This document shows positions 52,345-59,268 of a DNA stretch of 64,000 nt, piece by piece; within the stretch, counting starts at the first letter, position 1, and the number at the start of each line of letters is the position of its first letter. The stretch comes from Halobacteriales archaeon QH_7_66_36 (GTDB lineage Archaea; Halobacteriota; Halobacteria; Halobacteriales; Haloarculaceae). The position numbers were made by a program, and so were the translations under genes. The stretch lies in assembly GCA_003021175.1 (NCBI GenBank), contig PXQV01000012.1, positions 281,021 to 345,020 of the forward strand, given 5' to 3'. Below the pieces are notes generated by a model, which did not search any database, had not been told where the DNA came from, and worked only from the letters and a program-made list of their open reading frames with translations.

Positions 52345-52533
52345 ATGGCGACATCGACCGACACGGTGACCGGACGGATCGACGGCGCGCGAACGGAGCT
52401 GACGGTGACACAACTGCTCGCGGGACTGCTGCTCGTCGGCGTGCTCGGCGGCGCGCTGCTGTTCGCACAGGAGCCAGCGCTCCACGACGCGATGCACAAC
52501 TTCCGGCACGCGGCCGGCATCACCTGCCACTGA
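52345..52533 (+). CDS. cbtB: CbtB-type cobalt transporter small subunit
   Basis: 62 aa single-TM with His/Cys C-terminus DAMHNFRHAAGITCH; followed by CbtA. Confidence 0.85.
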   Translation: MATSTDTVTGRIDGARTELTVTQLLAGLLLVGVLGGALLFAQEPALHDAMHNFRHAAGITCH

Positions 52534-52535
52534 GC

Positions 52536-53240
52536 ATGTTCGCACGGTACGCGGCTCGGGGGCTGAAGGCGGGTGTCGTCGCGGGCGCGGCGTTCGGGCT
52601 GTTCGTCGCGTTCGTCGGCGACCCGCTGGTGCGGCTCTCCGAGGCGGTCGTCGCGGGCCACGAACACGCCGGCGAGGCGGGCGGTGCCGTACTCGCGTCG
52701 GCGACGAGCGTCGCTGCCGGCGGACTGTGGGGGCTGCTCGCCGGGCTCTGCTTCGGGGTTGCGTACTACGTCGCCGAACCGGCGCTACCCGGCGGCGCGG
52801 ACGCCCGGAGTTACCTGCTCGCAGCCGCCGGCTTCGTGACCGTCGCCGGCGCGCCGTGGCTCGTGCTGCCGCCCCAGCCCGCGGGCGTCGAGCCGGCGCT
52901 CGGCACCGAGGTCCGGCTGTTCTGGTACGCGACGATGATGGTCGCCGGCGCGCTCGTCTGCGGGCTCTCGCTGGCCGCGTACTCGCGACTCCAGTATCAG
53001 GGGCGGACGGCCGGACTCGGCGCTGCCGTGGTCCCGTTCGTGCTCCCGCTCGGGCTGGCAGCCGTCGCCCCCGCCGCGGCGACCGCTCCCGACCCGACGC
53101 TCGCGGCGGCCTACCGCGGTGTCGTCGCCTCGGGGCAGGTTCTCCTGTGGGGGACGCTCGCGGCGGCACACTCGTGGCTCGCCCGGCGGTCGTCCGTGGC
53201 GACCCGCGAGACGCTCGACGCTCCGGCGAGCGCCGACTGA
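52536..53240 (+). CDS. cbtA: CbtA-family cobalt transporter
   Basis: Multi-TM; GLKAGVVAGAAFGLFVAFVGDPLVRLSE, RLFWYATMMVAGALVCGLSLAAYSRLQ. Confidence 0.85.
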   Translation: MFARYAARGLKAGVVAGAAFGLFVAFVGDPLVRLSEAVVAGHEHAGEAGGAVLASATSVAAGGLWGLLAGLCFGVAYYVAEPALPGGADARSYLLAAAGFVTVAGAPWLVLPPQPAGVEPALGTEVRLFWYATMMVAGALVCGLSLAAYSRLQYQGRTAGLGAAVVPFVLPLGLAAVAPAAATAPDPTLAAAYRGVVASGQVLLWGTLAAAHSWLARRSSVATRETLDAPASAD

Positions 53241-53584
53241 TGGAGGACCGGACCGCCCACGTCGAGGCGAGCGGCTTCACCGACCACGTGCTCGTCTGCA
53301 CAACCGACCGCGACGGCAAGCACGCCTGCTGTGGCGAGGCGAAGGCCGACGACGTGCTCGACGCGGTCAAGGAGTGGCTCCGCGACCGCGGCGTCTTCTG
53401 GTCGTCCGTCCACGTCGCCGAGACGAGCTGTCTCGGTCTGTGTAGCGAGTCGGGGACCGCCGTCGCCATCCAGCCGCGCGGCCGCTGGTACGCCGGCGTC
53501 ACCCCGAGCGAGGTTTCCGACCTGCTCGAAGCGGAGTTCGGTTCCGACGCCGACCGGCTTGGAGTCGGGCCCACAGTCAAATAG
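53240..53584 (+). CDS. Thioredoxin-like (2Fe-2S) ferredoxin
   Basis: HVLVCTTDRDGKHACCGEAKADDVLDAVKEWLRDRGV...ETSCLGLCSESGTAVAIQPRGRWYAGVTPSEV. Confidence 0.85.
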   Translation: MEDRTAHVEASGFTDHVLVCTTDRDGKHACCGEAKADDVLDAVKEWLRDRGVFWSSVHVAETSCLGLCSESGTAVAIQPRGRWYAGVTPSEVSDLLEAEFGSDADRLGVGPTVK

Positions 53585-53679: not shown

Positions 53680-54918
53680 TCAGTCGCCGCGCTGGACGTG
53701 GAGTCGATAGGCACCGAGCGTCCCGTCGCCGTCGTGATAGGCGACCGGCTCCTCGACTGCGACGGCCGTATCCCCGTCGAGCGCGGCGGCCGTGACGACG
53801 CCCTCGGCGTCGAGGGTCGTCCCTTCGCCCGAGTCGATCTCGAACGTCCGGAGGCCGTGGGCCGCCGGGTCACGCTCCCGGAAGTGCTGTGCGCCGGGGA
53901 CGGCGACCCGATCGCCGTCGGTGCCGACGCCCCCGGCGAAGCCGCCGACTGGAGCCGTCCAGCGTCGCTCGCCGTCGAGGGTGTAGCCGAAGGCCGTGTG
54001 CTCGTCGGGGTGGAGCCCGTCCGTCTCTCGTGAGCCGACGGCGTAGGTGTTTCCGGTGACGAAGACGACGCCTTCTGGGCTACTACAGACATGGTTCGGA
54101 TACGCGTAGAGCCGTTCCCCGTCCCGGTCCACGGGGGTCGCGAGGTCGACGCGCCACCGCTCCCGGCCGCCCGGCCCGAGCCGATAGCCGCGGTAGTCGC
54201 CGTGGCTCGCGAGGACCAGACCGTCCTCGCACAGCGAGACGTCGCCGACGCGGCGGCCGCCGTCGGTACCGGGGTCCCACGTCCACCACGGGTCGCCAGT
54301 GGCCGCGTCGAGAACGACCAACCCGTGCTGGTGATCGCCCGGACACCGGTTGTACGCCACGGCGACGCGGTTGGCGTCGGCGGCGACCGAGATGGGGGAG
54401 GCGTCCGCGCCGTAGCGCCACGCGGTCGTCCCGTCCGGCCCGAACGCGTAGACGCGGCTCTGGAAGCGGCGCTCCCCGTCGACGCGCTCGTAGCGGCGCG
54501 CCGCGGCGTAGAGTCGGCCGTTCGCGGCCGTCAGCGACGCGACGAACGGGAGTTGGAACCGCGCGAGCTTGGTCGGTCCGCCGACGTCGTCGGCGGTTCG
54601 GTAGCGCCACCGGACCGCGCCGGTCACGGCGTCGTGGAGCCGTATCTCGCCGTCGGGGCCGCGCTCGCCGACCGCGACGCCGTCAGCGAAGGGAACGGCG
54701 GCGACCACCGCGCTGTCGCCCGCCTCCGACTGCCACCGCTCGGCCAGCGTCTCGCGGTCGAACGCCCGGACAGTGCCGTCGGCGGTTCCGACGACGACCG
54801 CGGAGGCGGTCACGGCGACGGCCGAGCGGCGACCGGCGTGTCGCGACCGGGCCGGCTCCACCTCGCCCAGCGACGTGCTGGCGGGCGACGGCCGGCTCTC
54901 GGGGGACGCGTCAGCCAT
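53680..54918 (-). CDS. PQQ-like beta-propeller repeat protein
   Basis: Repeated ...GTVRAFDRETLAERWQSEAGD..., VTGAVRWRYRTADD, DGTTAWRYGADASPISVAAD, AATGDPWWTWDPGTDG. Confidence 0.8.
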   Translation of the reverse strand: MADASPESRPSPASTSLGEVEPARSRHAGRRSAVAVTASAVVVGTADGTVRAFDRETLAERWQSEAGDSAVVAAVPFADGVAVGERGPDGEIRLHDAVTGAVRWRYRTADDVGGPTKLARFQLPFVASLTAANGRLYAAARRYERVDGERRFQSRVYAFGPDGTTAWRYGADASPISVAADANRVAVAYNRCPGDHQHGLVVLDAATGDPWWTWDPGTDGGRRVGDVSLCEDGLVLASHGDYRGYRLGPGGRERWRVDLATPVDRDGERLYAYPNHVCSSPEGVVFVTGNTYAVGSRETDGLHPDEHTAFGYTLDGERRWTAPVGGFAGGVGTDGDRVAVPGAQHFRERDPAAHGLRTFEIDSGEGTTLDAEGVVTAAALDGDTAVAVEEPVAYHDGDGTLGAYRLHVQRGD

Positions 54919-55285
54919 CCTCGACGGGGAACGCCTCGTGGAGCACCTCGTGGGCCTCCCCCAGTCCGCCGAGCACGTCCTCGCCTTGGTCGGTGAGGCG
55001 GCTCACGGCGCGTTCGGCATCGCGGACGGCGACGAGCCGGCCTCGGAGGTAATCGTACGACGGGTCCGCCGAGTCGGTCTCGGCGATTTCAGCCTCGAGG
55101 TCGACGAGCGCCGCGTCGAGATGGCGGGCCAGTTCCGCGAGCGTGTCGGCATCCGCGAGCGCGCCGATGGGGCCGTCGAGGTGGCCCGCCAGTTCCTGCT
55201 CCGCGTGGTCGCGGGCGCTGCGGTCCTCGGTGCCGAGGACGTTCATCAGTCCGAGTCGTAGGGCTTCGAGTTCGTGACAGGTCAT
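54911..55285 (-). CDS. DUF3209 family protein
   Basis: MTCHELEALRLGLMNVLGTEDRSARDHAEQEL...; family recognised from cobalamin-cluster context. Confidence 0.75.
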   Translation of the reverse strand: MTCHELEALRLGLMNVLGTEDRSARDHAEQELAGHLDGPIGALADADTLAELARHLDAALVDLEAEIAETDSADPSYDYLRGRLVAVRDAERAVSRLTDQGEDVLGGLGEAHEVLHEAFPVEDG

Positions 55286-56502
55286 AGCGTCTGGTCGACG
55301 AGGTCCGAGACGATGCGCTCGCGGTCGAGATGCGAGGAGACGATGCGGTCGGCGTCGTCGGTGTCCACGTCCCCGTACCAGACGCCGTCGGGGTAGACGG
55401 CCACCATCGGACCCTCCCCGCAGCGCCCGAGACAGGAGGTGCGGGAGATACGCGCGTCACAGGCGTCCGAGTCGCGGGCCGCCTGTCGGAGCCGTTCGAG
55501 GACTTCGGGCGCGCCGTCGGCCGCGCACGTCTGGTTCGTGCAGACGGCGACGTGGTGGGCCGGCGCGTCGTGGACGTGCGGGTCGTCGTCCACGTTCTCG
55601 CGGTCGGCGTGTGCCTCCTGATGTGTGAGCGCGCGCAGCGTCGCCCGGGCACCGCCCACGTCCTCCTCGTAGCCGTCGAGTTCAACCTTGTACTTGCAGG
55701 TGTCACAGGACATGTTCACGGAGTCGGTGCGCGCCTCCTGCCAGCGGTCGCCGAGCACGTCCAGCAGGCGGCTGTCGGTGCCCAGCGGGTCGCCGGCACC
55801 GGCGTCGACGTACGGATACTCCGCGTCGAACTCGGCCGCGCCGTCGCGGATGCGCCCGGTGAGCACGCCGTCGCCGAGCATGTACGGCAGGACGACCACC
55901 GCGTCGGGGCGCGACTTGGCGACGGTGTGGAGCGTCTCGTCGAGCGTCGGCTCCGTCACGCCGATGAACGTCGCCGCCGCCCGCGAGAACGAGCGACCCT
56001 CGTACAGCAGGCGGGCGAGCTTGTGCGCGTCGGCGTTCGCGTCCGGGTCCGAGGAGCCGCGGGCGCAGACGACGACCGCCACGTCGTCCGTCTCGCGGTC
56101 GACACCCAGCTCCGCCTCGACGGCGGCAGCCCGGTCGTCGAGCAGGTCGACCAGCGCCGGGTGGACGCCGAGGTGGCCGCCCGCGTCGATACCGACGTCG
56201 TGGGTCGCGCGGGCCTGCTCGACGGCCAGCGGCACGTCGTTCTTGACGTGGCTCGCGGCGAACAGCGACAGCTGGACGACGGTCAGCCGCGAGACGGCCG
56301 GCGCGAGCCCGGCGATGGCGTCGGGAATCGACGGCTCCGCGAGTTCGAGGAAGCCGGCGTCGACCGGCACGCCCAGTCGCTCTTCGAGGGCGACCGCGAG
56401 CGTCCGCACCTGCTCGTTGGACTTCTCGCGCCGGGAGCCGTGCCCGACGAGCAGGACCGCCTCGTCGTCGAGGGCGACGGCCGCAGACTCGGTGGCGGTC
56501 AT
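55282..56502 (-). CDS. cbiX: Sirohydrochlorin cobaltochelatase CbiX fused to C-terminal (2Fe-2S) ferredoxin domain
   Basis: VLLVGHGSRREKSNEQVRTLAVALEERLG, SLFAASHVKNDVPLAVEQAR, MSCDTCKYKVEL (MxCxxC), CTNQTCAADGAPEVLERLRQ...TSCLGRCGEGPMVAVYPDGVWYGDV. Confidence 0.9.
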   Translation of the reverse strand: MTATESAAVALDDEAVLLVGHGSRREKSNEQVRTLAVALEERLGVPVDAGFLELAEPSIPDAIAGLAPAVSRLTVVQLSLFAASHVKNDVPLAVEQARATHDVGIDAGGHLGVHPALVDLLDDRAAAVEAELGVDRETDDVAVVVCARGSSDPDANADAHKLARLLYEGRSFSRAAATFIGVTEPTLDETLHTVAKSRPDAVVVLPYMLGDGVLTGRIRDGAAEFDAEYPYVDAGAGDPLGTDSRLLDVLGDRWQEARTDSVNMSCDTCKYKVELDGYEEDVGGARATLRALTHQEAHADRENVDDDPHVHDAPAHHVAVCTNQTCAADGAPEVLERLRQAARDSDACDARISRTSCLGRCGEGPMVAVYPDGVWYGDVDTDDADRIVSSHLDRERIVSDLVDQTL

Positions 56503-57203
56503 AACTCCCCAACCGCGTGGCCGGTCGCGCGCTCGACGCTCCGGTGGAGCTTCCGCCGGCGGTCGTCGGCGTACAGCCCCGAGGCGTCGCTGCCGTCGTA
56601 CACCCACTCGGCGAACGCGGCGGTGTCGGCGTCGTCCGCGAGCCCGAACCAGTAGCCGCCCGAGGACGTCTCCGAGAGGTCGTCCGTCGGCGCGTGCGGC
56701 TCGGCGGCGGTCAGTTGGGAGCGAACCGTTTCGAGCAGCCGGTCGTCGTCGTGGACGAAGGAGACGCCCACCGAGTTCGACGACTCGCGGAAGCAGACCG
56801 TCCCGCAGGCTTCGAGGACGCCGCGCAGTAACTGTGCGCGGTGGTCGGCGAACGCGTCGAGCCGGTAGCCGCCGGGCTGGCCGTCGACCGGGAGTCCGAA
56901 CGCCGCGCCCGCGCGCCGTGCCACGTCACCGAACACCTGCAGCTCGTACTCGTCCTCGTAGCGGACGACCGAGGCGTCGTGGGCCGACTCGCGGGCCGTC
57001 GTCTCGTGGCTGCGGCTGTCCGCGCCAGCGACGGCCGCGAGCGCGTCGGCGGCCGTCTCGTCGCCGGTGCGCACCGTCACGCAGTCCGCCGAGAGGTCGC
57101 CGTCGCCGACGACCCGTCCCCAGAAGTATGCCGTCTCGGGAGTGGCGGCCAGCAGGTCCGCCGCCGGCGCGGGGGTCGGCGCGGGAGCCTCGGACTCACT
57201 CAT
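56499..57203 (-). CDS. Cobalamin-operon protein with LAGLIDADG-like fold signature
   Basis: AYFWGRVVGDGDLSADCVTVRT, QLLRGVLEACGTVCFRESSNSVGVSFVHDDDRLLETVRSQL, WVYDGSDASGLYADDRRRKL. Confidence 0.65.
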   Translation of the reverse strand: MSESEAPAPTPAPAADLLAATPETAYFWGRVVGDGDLSADCVTVRTGDETAADALAAVAGADSRSHETTARESAHDASVVRYEDEYELQVFGDVARRAGAAFGLPVDGQPGGYRLDAFADHRAQLLRGVLEACGTVCFRESSNSVGVSFVHDDDRLLETVRSQLTAAEPHAPTDDLSETSSGGYWFGLADDADTAAFAEWVYDGSDASGLYADDRRRKLHRSVERATGHAVGEL

Positions 57204-57432
57204 CGCCCACTACCTCCACCTTGATGGCGTCCAGTGGACAGGCGGCCGCGGCACCCTCGGCGGCGGCCAGTCGGTCGTCGTCGAAGCGGGCGACGGTCGT
57301 TTCCTCGGTCGCGGTGTCGGCGATGGCGGCGAGACCGTCCTCGCTCTCGACGAACCGGTCGTCGCGAACGAGACACGCGAAGACGCCGTCGCAGGCGTCC
57401 CGGTCGAGCCGGATAGCGTACTCAGTAGTCAT
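57196..57432 (-). CDS. Ferredoxin
   Basis: 78 aa; YAIRLDRDACDGVFACLVRDDRFVE...AAAACPLDAIKVEVV. Confidence 0.85.
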   Translation of the reverse strand: MTTEYAIRLDRDACDGVFACLVRDDRFVESEDGLAAIADTATEETTVARFDDDRLAAAEGAAAACPLDAIKVEVVGDE

Positions 57433-58417
57433 ACTTGGTCTCGTAGCCCCGCGGGGTGACCATCCGGCCGTCCCACACGTAGGTCTCCTCGTTACCGACG
57501 AGGACCGTGGTCGTCATGTCGATCAGGTCGGTCTCGCCGAGTGCTTCGAGCTCGCCGAGTTCGACGATTTCTGTTTGCTCGTCCTCGCGGCCCGCGCCGT
57601 GGACGATACCGACCGGCGTGTCCGGCGCGCGGTGCTCCAGCAGTATCTCACAGCACTTCTCGAAGTTCTCGCGGCGCTTGCGGCTCCACGGGTTGTAGAT
57701 GCTGATGGTGAACCCCTCCTTGGCGACGGCGTGGAGCCGCGACTCGATGGTCGGCATGTCCGTCAGGTGGTCGGACAGCGAGACGCTGACGGTGTCGTTG
57801 ACCAGCGGCGCGCCGACGCGCGCGGCACACGACTGGGCCGCGGGCACGCCGGGAACCACCTCGAAGTCCAGCGCGCTCGCCGTCGCGCCCTTCGACTCGA
57901 TGATTTCGAGCGCGAGGCCGGCTAGCGCGTACACGTTCGGGTCGCCGCTGCCGATGATGGCTACGTCGTTGCCCGCGAGCGCGCGATCGATGGCCTCCTC
58001 CGTCCGGGACACCTCGCCGCACATCGGCGTGTCGTAGATGTCCTCGGCGTCGTCGGTGATCTCGTCCGGCAACAGTTCGACGTACGTCGTGTAGCCGACG
58101 ATGTGGTCGACCGCCGATAGCGCCGCCGTCGCCCGCGAGGTCATCCCCTCCGGTTGGCCGGGACCGAGTCCGACCGCGACCAGCTGGCCGGGGTCGGCGT
58201 CGAAGTCGTCGACGGTCGCGCCGACTTCCTCCTCCTCGTCGGTCGAGGACGCGCCACAGCTTGAGGAACTCGACTCCGACCCGCTGGAGGGCGCGCCACA
58301 CGCGCTCCCCGTCGAGGTGTCGGTGCTCGCCTCCGCGGTGGCCGTCCCGCCGTCCGTCTTCGCGCCACAGTTGCTCTCTGTCGATGCCTCGGTCGTGGTG
58401 GTGTCGTCCGTACTCAT
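57422..58417 (-). CDS. cbiH: Precorrin-3B/cobalt-precorrin-3 C17-methyltransferase CbiH (copy 2, Cys-containing N-terminal extension)
   Basis: LVAVGLGPGQPEGMTSRATAALSAVDHIVGYTTYV, IIGSGDPNVYALAG, FEVVPGVPAAQSCAARVGAPL, ISIYNPWSRKRRENF. Confidence 0.88.
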   Translation of the reverse strand: MSTDDTTTTEASTESNCGAKTDGGTATAEASTDTSTGSACGAPSSGSESSSSSCGASSTDEEEEVGATVDDFDADPGQLVAVGLGPGQPEGMTSRATAALSAVDHIVGYTTYVELLPDEITDDAEDIYDTPMCGEVSRTEEAIDRALAGNDVAIIGSGDPNVYALAGLALEIIESKGATASALDFEVVPGVPAAQSCAARVGAPLVNDTVSVSLSDHLTDMPTIESRLHAVAKEGFTISIYNPWSRKRRENFEKCCEILLEHRAPDTPVGIVHGAGREDEQTEIVELGELEALGETDLIDMTTTVLVGNEETYVWDGRMVTPRGYETKYDY

Positions 58418-58419
58418 TC

Positions 58420-59268
58420 TCAGAAATCCTCCACGTCACGCCCGCCGCGCGGGGTGACGAGATACTCCTCGTGGTCGTTCTCCCACACCTCTGTCTCGGC
58501 CGTGCCGACGACGATGGAGGTGCCCATGCCGCCGACCTTCTCGTCGTGTTCGGTCGCGGCCCCGAGCGTCGTCACGGTGTGCGTCTCGTCCTCGAGATTG
58601 CGGCCCGCGTCCCCCCGGCCGGCGTCGTTGAAGATGCCCACCGGCACGTCGTCGGCCCGCTCCTCGCGGAGCACGTCGATGGCCCGCTCGTAGTCGCGCC
58701 AGCAGTTGTAGAGGACGACGACGAAGCCGCTGATGGCGGCCGCGCGCAGCTTCTCCTCGATCTCCTCCCAGCCGCGCCACTTGTCCGACAGCGACACGGT
58801 ACAGAAGTCGTTCGACAGCGGCGCGCCGAGGTTCGCCGCCCCGCCCAGCGCCGCCGTCACCCCCGGAACTATCTCGATGGGGATGTCGTAGGCTTCCTCC
58901 TCTTCCGCCATCAGGAACAGCAGGTCGCTCTTGCCGTACACGTTGGGGTCGCCCCCGGAGACGTGCGCCACGTCCTCGCCGTCGCGCACCCGCTCGAAGG
59001 CCTCCTTGGCGAGTTCGACCTGCCGGCCCATCGACGACCGGACGATCTCCTGTGTCGTCCCGTTGGGTCGTGCAGCTATTCCCCCGTCCGTCACGGCGTC
59101 CTCGGGCGGGAGCGTCCCGTCCCGGCGCAGGAACTCCTGATACAGGTTCGACGCGATGACGCAGTCCGCCGAGGTGATGACATCCTTCGCGCGCTGAGTC
59201 ATCGCGTGGGGGAGGCCCGGCCCGATGCCGACGACGTAGAGCGTTCCCATGGAAGCACTTCCCGCCAT
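58420..59268 (-). CDS. cbiH: Precorrin-3B/cobalt-precorrin-3 C17-methyltransferase CbiH (copy 1)
   Basis: MGTLYVVGIGPGLPHAMTQRAKDVITSADCVIASN, HVSGGDPNVYGKSDLL, IEIVPGVTAALGGAANLGAPLSNDFCTVSLSD; alternative start 59250. Confidence 0.85.
   Translation of the reverse strand: MAGSASMGTLYVVGIGPGLPHAMTQRAKDVITSADCVIASNLYQEFLRRDGTLPPEDAVTDGGIAARPNGTTQEIVRSSMGRQVELAKEAFERVRDGEDVAHVSGGDPNVYGKSDLLFLMAEEEEAYDIPIEIVPGVTAALGGAANLGAPLSNDFCTVSLSDKWRGWEEIEEKLRAAAISGFVVVLYNCWRDYERAIDVLREERADDVPVGIFNDAGRGDAGRNLEDETHTVTTLGAATEHDEKVGGMGTSIVVGTAETEVWENDHEEYLVTPRGGRDVEDF

What the first reader, a model, noticed from the sequence alone, without database searches (positions are those of the whole stretch)
56499..57203. 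Apparently domesticated, probably nuclease-dead LAGLIDADG-like protein in the cobalamin operon
Seen: AYFWGRVVGDGDLSAD (motif 1 keeps the acid) and QLLRGVLEACGTVCFRESSNSVGVSFVHDDDRLLETV (motif 2 has Cys in place of the catalytic Asp), plus a C-terminal LYADDRRRKL. Layout matches two-motif homing endonucleases/intein nucleases but the gene is in frame and translationally coupled between cbiX and a ferredoxin. Inference: a selfish nuclease recruited as a cobalamin-operon structural or DNA/RNA-binding protein.
Basis: partly seen in the sequence, partly recalled or inferred. Interest (0 to 1): 0.72.

Follow-up and report, generated by a model that had tools for sequence, protein, structure and literature searches.

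The report
Retired homing-enzyme fold in B12 operon
A protein with the fold of selfish DNA-cutting enzymes, but without their cutting residues, is built into the vitamin B12 operon of about half of the salt-loving archaea sampled, where it may help the enzyme that inserts cobalt; it gives a fold to a gene whose function has been listed as an open question.

Summary
Window 56499-57203 (-) encodes a 234-aa protein overlapping ferredoxin (8 nt) and cbiX (4 nt). By synteny it is Haloferax HVO_B0055, one of four published 'function unassigned' cobalamin-cluster genes. The LAGLIDADG reading is right: AlphaFold models of this protein and of its most divergent relative (pLDDT 91 and 90) have the duplicated LAGLIDADG core, and the top-ranked solved structures are all LAGLIDADG proteins. 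Nuclease death is stronger than claimed: none of 60 homologs keeps both catalytic acids. Motif 2 is Cys in 57/60 (never acidic); motif 1 is non-acidic in 19/60. The gene tracks de novo B12 synthesis: CbiG is present in 40/40 tested genomes with it and 8/190 without. Function is unproven. My best guess is a cobalt-handling partner of the CbiX cobaltochelatase: it normally adjoins cbiX; all six gene-less genomes whose cluster CbiX is visible carry a histidine-tailed CbiX; one has that CbiX in the gene's own slot; and a divergent member lies between two cation-efflux genes. But one genome has both the gene and the tail, and the tree reduces most of the pattern to a single contrast, so confidence in this function is only moderate.

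The parts
56499..57203 (-). LAGLIDADG-fold cobalamin-operon protein (234 aa), syntenic equivalent of HVO_B0055
   Evidence: ORF; family in 210 of 400 Halobacteria genomes; fold
57084..57140 (-). Motif 1 region, residues 22-40 (PETAYFWGRVVGDGDLSAD); Asp34 at the catalytic position, not conserved in the family
56781..56837 (-). Motif 2 region, residues 123-141 (AQLLRGVLEACGTVCFRES); Cys133 in place of the catalytic Asp, Cys137 and Glu131 invariant
56805..56807 (-). Cys133 codon (tgc), the position of the catalytic acid in active LAGLIDADG enzymes
56643..56666 (-). Family signature SSGGYWFG (residues 180-187), Ser181 and Phe186 invariant
56547..56561 (-). C-terminal RRRKL (residues 215-219), Arg215 and Lys218 invariant
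57196..57432 (-). Single-cluster ferredoxin-like protein (Pfam Fer4_15), overlaps the gene by 8 nt
55282..56502 (-). CbiX cobaltochelatase with C-terminal thioredoxin-like [2Fe-2S] domain, overlaps the gene by 4 nt
54911..55285 (-). DUF3209 protein (124 aa)
   Evidence: Pfam PF11483 E 2.7e-51
53680..54918 (-). PQQ-like beta-propeller protein
   Evidence: Pfam PQQ_2
57422..58417 (-). CbiH2/CobJ-type corrin methyltransferase
   Evidence: TP_methylase; synteny
58420..59250 (-). CbiH1, divergent CbiH-like methyltransferase (start codon approximate); published candidate for the missing C1 methylation
   Evidence: TP_methylase; PMC8305020
59270..60358 (-). CbiG (start codon approximate)
   Evidence: CbiG_C match in this genome; synteny

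Best explanation
The gene encodes a single-chain, two-repeat LAGLIDADG-fold protein that has lost its nuclease residues and become a fixed part of the cobalt-early B12 operon of haloarchaea. Shown: the fold (by prediction), loss of the catalytic acids, co-inheritance with the pathway, conserved synteny and gene overlap with cbiX. Inferred: it works with the CbiX cobaltochelatase, which is made from the next, overlapping gene, by binding or presenting Co(II) (or holding CbiX with the neighbouring ferredoxin) so that cobalt reaches sirohydrochlorin. Candidate ligands are the conserved Cys133 (in the dead active site), Cys137, His75 and His151. In this reading it does the job that a histidine-rich tail on CbiX does in relatives lacking the gene.
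For: Fold: this protein; divergent member; Pfam LAGLIDADG_3 in 26/60. Nuclease-dead: 0 of 60 keep both acids. Pathway link: CbiG in 40/40 with the gene and 8/190 without (Fisher p about 4e-37, not corrected for kinship). Link to CbiX: adjacent in the clusters compared, G021 excepted, with 8-nt/4-nt overlaps; 67 of 68 gene-bearing genomes with a visible CbiX have one without a His tail, while all 6 gene-less genomes with a visible cluster CbiX have a His-tailed one. In G054 a His-tailed CbiX sits in the gene's slot, between ferredoxin and the 2Fe-2S CbiX. The His-rich region of Bacillus CbiX has been proposed to store and deliver metal (PMC7689651). In G021 the divergent homolog lies in a same-strand run cation-efflux / homolog / rhodanese / cation-efflux. 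Cys137 and His75 are invariant; Cys133 and His151 are each 57/60.
Against: G380 has both the gene and a His-tailed CbiX, with no DUF3209 found in the cluster, so the two are not strictly exclusive. In the CbiX tree all His-tailed enzymes lie on one side of one branch (98/92), so most of the anticorrelation is one evolutionary contrast, and several long branches make it uncertain. G325 and G368 have neither the gene nor a CbiX in the stretch examined. A metal-delivery role for this fold is unprecedented to my knowledge, and I had no model coordinates, so whether the Cys/His residues lie together was not tested. Conserved Arg/Lys residues (71, 81, 139, 215, 218) would also fit nucleic acid or an anionic tetrapyrrole.
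Confidence: 0.42

Rival explanations
1. A nuclease-dead LAGLIDADG DNA- or RNA-binding regulator of the cobalamin operon, in the way that WhiA is a LAGLIDADG-bearing transcription factor.
For: WhiA is the precedent for an exapted LAGLIDADG fold and is among the best structural matches (3hyj, 3hyi, 8dy9). Several Arg/Lys residues are invariant or nearly so.
Against: No room for a helix-turn-helix domain: the protein ends with the second LAGLIDADG repeat. It overlaps enzyme genes in mid-operon. In G054 its place is taken by a chelatase variant, not a regulator. The divergent copy in G021 sits with metal transporters. Net charge is strongly negative (pI 4.4), though its operon neighbours are equally acidic, so this says little.
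Confidence: 0.22
2. A new enzyme filling one of the two published pathway gaps (C1 methylation, normally CbiD, or cobalt-precorrin-6A reduction, normally CbiJ), built on a LAGLIDADG scaffold.
For: Published as an obvious candidate because it is one of four unassigned cluster genes (PMC8305020). The gaps are real here: CbiD in 0/48 and CbiJ above cut-off in 0/48 genomes.
Against: G001 and G007 have the pathway genes and lack CbiD, CbiJ and this gene too, so something else must fill the gaps there. The model matches no nucleotide- or SAM-binding fold. CbiH1 is a published alternative candidate for the methylation.
Confidence: 0.14
3. A non-catalytic scaffold that holds CbiX, ferredoxin and methyltransferases together, with no ligand of its own.
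For: Conserved gene order and overlaps between ferredoxin and CbiX.
Against: Invariant polar and thiol residues (Cys137, His75, Ser148, Ser181, Glu131) suggest a ligand site rather than only an interface. In G021 the gene is unlinked from the cluster.
Confidence: 0.15
4. An active or recently active homing endonuclease, or an intein remnant, that happens to lie in the operon.
For: The fold and motif layout resemble active enzymes.
Against: No homolog keeps both acids. One copy at one syntenic site across many genera, with overlapping start and stop codons. No relatives found in phages or viral contigs.
Confidence: 0.02

Closest known systems
WhiA (DUF199), LAGLIDADG sporulation regulator of Gram-positive bacteria
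   Same: A LAGLIDADG fold serving a host role; among the top structural matches (3hyj_D E 9.1e-5; for the divergent member 3hyi E 6.3e-6).
   Different: WhiA has a separate DNA-binding helix-turn-helix domain and is a transcription factor; this protein has only the two LAGLIDADG repeats and lies in a metabolic operon of archaea.
I-Tsp061I, I-DmoI, PI-SceI, I-SceI (active LAGLIDADG homing endonucleases)
   Same: Same single-chain double-repeat fold (2dch E 2.3e-5; 5a0w E 1.5e-4).
   Different: They keep catalytic acids in both motifs and move as selfish elements (general knowledge); here motif 2 is Cys in 57/60 and the gene is fixed in one operon.
bI3 LAGLIDADG maturase
   Same: A LAGLIDADG protein used for something other than DNA cutting (2ab5, E 3.9e-5).
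   Different: It is an RNA-splicing helper encoded by its own intron; no intron is associated here.
HVO_B0055, Haloferax volcanii
   Same: Same position between cbiX1 (B0054) and B0056/cbiH2 (B0057) in the cobalamin cluster (PMC8305020); very probably the ortholog.
   Different: Listed there as 'function unassigned; no GSP' in the main text, with no fold given; its sequence could not be fetched here, so orthology rests on synteny.
CbiX-L of Bacillus megaterium (chelatase with 4Fe-4S centre and His-rich region)
   Same: Proposed metal storage/delivery by the His-rich region (PMC7689651) is the job I propose for this protein in haloarchaea whose CbiX lacks the tail.
   Different: No sequence or fold relation; analogy only.

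Membership tests
LAGLIDADG superfamily (fold) | Alpha-beta-beta-alpha-beta-beta-alpha core, here twice in one chain | tested here: met
   AlphaFold secondary structure and Foldseek matches
LAGLIDADG superfamily (sequence) | Significant match to a LAGLIDADG profile | tested here: inconclusive
   This protein: no Pfam hit at E<=10. Family: LAGLIDADG_3 in 26/60, best E 3e-5; three members viewed singly scored 14.3-15.4 bits, under the 22.5 cut-off
LAGLIDADG homing endonuclease (active) | Acidic catalytic residue at the end of both LAGLIDADG helices | tested here: not met
   Cys133 in motif 2; 0 of 60 homologs have both acids
LAGLIDADG homing endonuclease (active) | Encoded in a mobile intron, intein or free-standing selfish element | tested here: not met
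   Operon gene with overlapping neighbours at one syntenic site across haloarchaea; no phage or viral relatives found
LAGLIDADG homing endonuclease (active) | Specific DNA binding and cleavage | not testable with these tools
   Needs an assay
WhiA | LAGLIDADG domain plus helix-turn-helix domain | tested here: not met
   Protein ends after the second repeat; no second domain
CbiJ (cobalt-precorrin-6A reductase) | Match to PF02571 | tested here: not met
   No Pfam hit; CbiJ above cut-off in 0/48 genomes
CbiD (C1 methyltransferase) | Match to PF01888 | tested here: not met
   No Pfam hit; CbiD in 0/48 genomes
Cobalt-handling partner of CbiX (functional class) | Binds Co(II) and interacts with CbiX | not testable with these tools
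   Only gene context and conserved Cys/His residues support it

The most novel reading that the evidence does not exclude
A LAGLIDADG nuclease was turned into a metallochaperone: its dead active site (Cys133, with Cys137 and conserved His residues) became a cobalt site serving CbiX, functionally equivalent to the His-rich chelatase tail. This would be a cobalt-delivery protein for the cobalt-early B12 route unrelated to the GTPase CobW.
Probability: 0.25. Interest if true: 0.85.

Novelty: new variant of a known kind. Interest (0 to 1): 0.64.

Why it matters
Few host-serving LAGLIDADG proteins are known; those I know of (WhiA, maturases, the yeast HO endonuclease) all act on nucleic acid. This one is built into a metabolic operon and is present in about half of the haloarchaea sampled. 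It gives a fold to one of four published 'unassigned' cobalamin-cluster genes, makes it a weaker candidate for the two pathway gaps, and offers a simple genetic test (deletion rescued by cobalt or by a His-tailed CbiX).

Tried and rejected
Direct searches with this one protein found nothing of use (Pfam, NCBIfam, PDB), and PDB profile searches gave only chance hits; only the family-wide Pfam scan and the models showed the fold. The two halves are not detectably repeats by profile comparison (hhalign E 0.36), so the duplication rests on structure. I considered that absence of the gene marks anaerobes: G001, G007 and G134 lack haem-copper oxidase, but G054, G276, G326, G325 and G368 have it, so oxygen explains only part. 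I considered gap-filling of CbiD/CbiJ and lowered it because G001 and G007 lack all three. The Fisher p-value for gene versus His tail (4e-8) overstates the case, because the CbiX tree puts the His-tailed enzymes on one side of one branch. A first extraction script read minus-strand loci on the wrong strand and was redone.

Full report
OBSERVATION. The ORF at 56499-57203 (-) is real and exactly as described: 234 aa, ATG start, with the two quoted motifs and the C-terminal LYADDRRRKL. Its start overlaps the end of a ferredoxin-like gene by 8 nt and its stop overlaps the start of cbiX by 4 nt. The same overlaps are annotated in Haladaptatus halobius, where the gene is called 'cobalamin biosynthesis protein'. 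The surrounding genes on the same strand are cbiT, cbiL, cbiF, cbiG, two CbiH-type methyltransferases, the ferredoxin, this gene, cbiX with a C-terminal [2Fe-2S] domain, DUF3209 and a PQQ-like beta-propeller.

FAMILY. A search of 400 Halobacteria genomes found 211 matches; one weak match (G022) was not confirmed by the profile, leaving 210. In a phylum-wide sample of 397 genomes all 43 matches were in the same order. No relative was found in phages or viral contigs. By synteny it is HVO_B0055 of Haloferax volcanii, listed as 'function unassigned' together with HVO_B0052, B0053 and B0056 in a 2021 review of open annotation issues (PMC8305020). No paper in the held library combines LAGLIDADG with cobalamin and haloarchaea, or with cobalamin biosynthesis and archaea; subscription journals are mostly not held.

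FOLD. The single sequence hits no Pfam or NCBIfam model, but Pfam LAGLIDADG_3 matches 26 of 60 homologs, best E 3e-5. AlphaFold2 with the 60-sequence alignment gave mean pLDDT 91.1 and pTM 0.90, with the helix-strand order of two LAGLIDADG repeats. The 24 best PDB matches are all LAGLIDADG proteins: I-Tsp061I, PI-SceI, bI3 maturase, TliVMA intein, WhiA, I-DmoI, I-SceI, I-OnuI variants and I-GzeII. In a library of viral protein models, many of the best matches are named homing endonucleases, inteins or intein-bearing proteins. A second model, of the most divergent member (G021, 198 aa, 35% identical), gave pLDDT 90.0 and 46 PDB matches at E<=0.001, with all 50 listed matches LAGLIDADG proteins. 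TM-scores are moderate (0.4-0.6), so the relationship is distant.

NUCLEASE DEATH. In 60 homologs motif 2 carries Cys (57), Ala (2) or Thr (1) where active enzymes have Asp; motif 1 carries Asp in 41 and Ser, Asn, Gly or Ala in 19. None has both acids. Other residues are rigidly kept: His75, Glu131, Cys137, Ser148, Ser181, Phe186, Arg215 and Lys218 are invariant, and His151 and Cys133 are each present in 57 of 60. That pattern suggests a new, shared function rather than decay. Loss of cleavage itself is inferred, not assayed.

LINK TO B12. CbiG, a marker of the de novo route, is present in all 40 tested genomes with the gene and in 8 of 190 without it. CbiD is absent from all 48 genomes tested and CbiJ is never above cut-off, confirming the two published pathway gaps. 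G001 and G007, which have the pathway genes, lack this gene as well as CbiD and CbiJ, so this gene is not the general answer to the gaps.

WHAT REPLACES IT. Of the 8 gene-less, CbiG-positive genomes, six have a visible cluster CbiX, and in all six one ends in a His-rich tail: G001, G007, G134, G276, G326 and G054. The first five also lack the ferredoxin, DUF3209 and the PQQ protein in the cluster. G054 is the telling case: it keeps ferredoxin, 2Fe-2S CbiX, DUF3209 and PQQ, but has a second, His-tailed CbiX exactly where this gene normally lies. Among 68 gene-bearing genomes with a visible CbiX only G380 has a His-tailed one. G325 and G368 have no CbiX in the stretch examined. In the CbiX tree the His-tailed enzymes lie on one side of a supported branch (98/92), with long-branch warnings, so the contrast is mostly one evolutionary event plus two mixed genomes, one for replacement (G054) and one against strict exclusivity (G380). 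In G021 the divergent copy is away from the B12 cluster, in a same-strand run cation-efflux transporter, this gene, rhodanese, cation-efflux transporter.

MECHANISM. The His-rich region of Bacillus CbiX was proposed to store and deliver metal (PMC7689651). I infer that this protein serves the same end in haloarchaea whose CbiX has no such tail: it is made from the gene overlapping cbiX, and holds or presents Co(II), or positions CbiX and the ferredoxin. Cys133, Cys137, His75 and His151 are candidate ligands. Their spatial closeness could not be checked because model coordinates are not given. Fold, loss of the acids and pathway membership are well supported (I would put each near 0.9 or above); the cobalt role is inference (0.42 for the whole statement).

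VERDICT. New variant of a known kind: exapted LAGLIDADG proteins exist (WhiA), but not, to my knowledge, in a cofactor-synthesis operon and without an added DNA-binding domain.

Noticed in passing
L124:10444-13453 (G021 contig 57): Same-strand run of two cation-efflux transporters flanking the divergent homolog and a rhodanese, away from the B12 cluster.
   Followed up: partly
L099, L100, L117, L126, L127, L118, L123: Haloarchaeal cluster CbiX comes in two forms: with a C-terminal [2Fe-2S] domain, or with a long His-rich tail.
   Followed up: partly
G001, G007, G134 (clusters L099, L100, L117): These three CbiG-positive genomes have no detectable haem-copper oxidase and are presumably anaerobes.
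   Followed up: partly
window 52345-53584 (+): Small ORFs in the place of the CbtB, CbtA and 2Fe-2S genes annotated beside the cluster in Haladaptatus (L129); probably a cobalt transporter pair.
   Followed up: no
L044 (G289): Homolog with an insertion in the hairpin after motif 2 (around SEASRGSTEQGSVVV), showing that this loop tolerates insertions.
   Followed up: no
G325, G368 (L128, L125): Cobalamin clusters with no CbiX in the fetched 19 kb; the source of their cobaltochelatase is unknown. G325 has a thioredoxin/glutaredoxin-like gene downstream of cbiH2.
   Followed up: no
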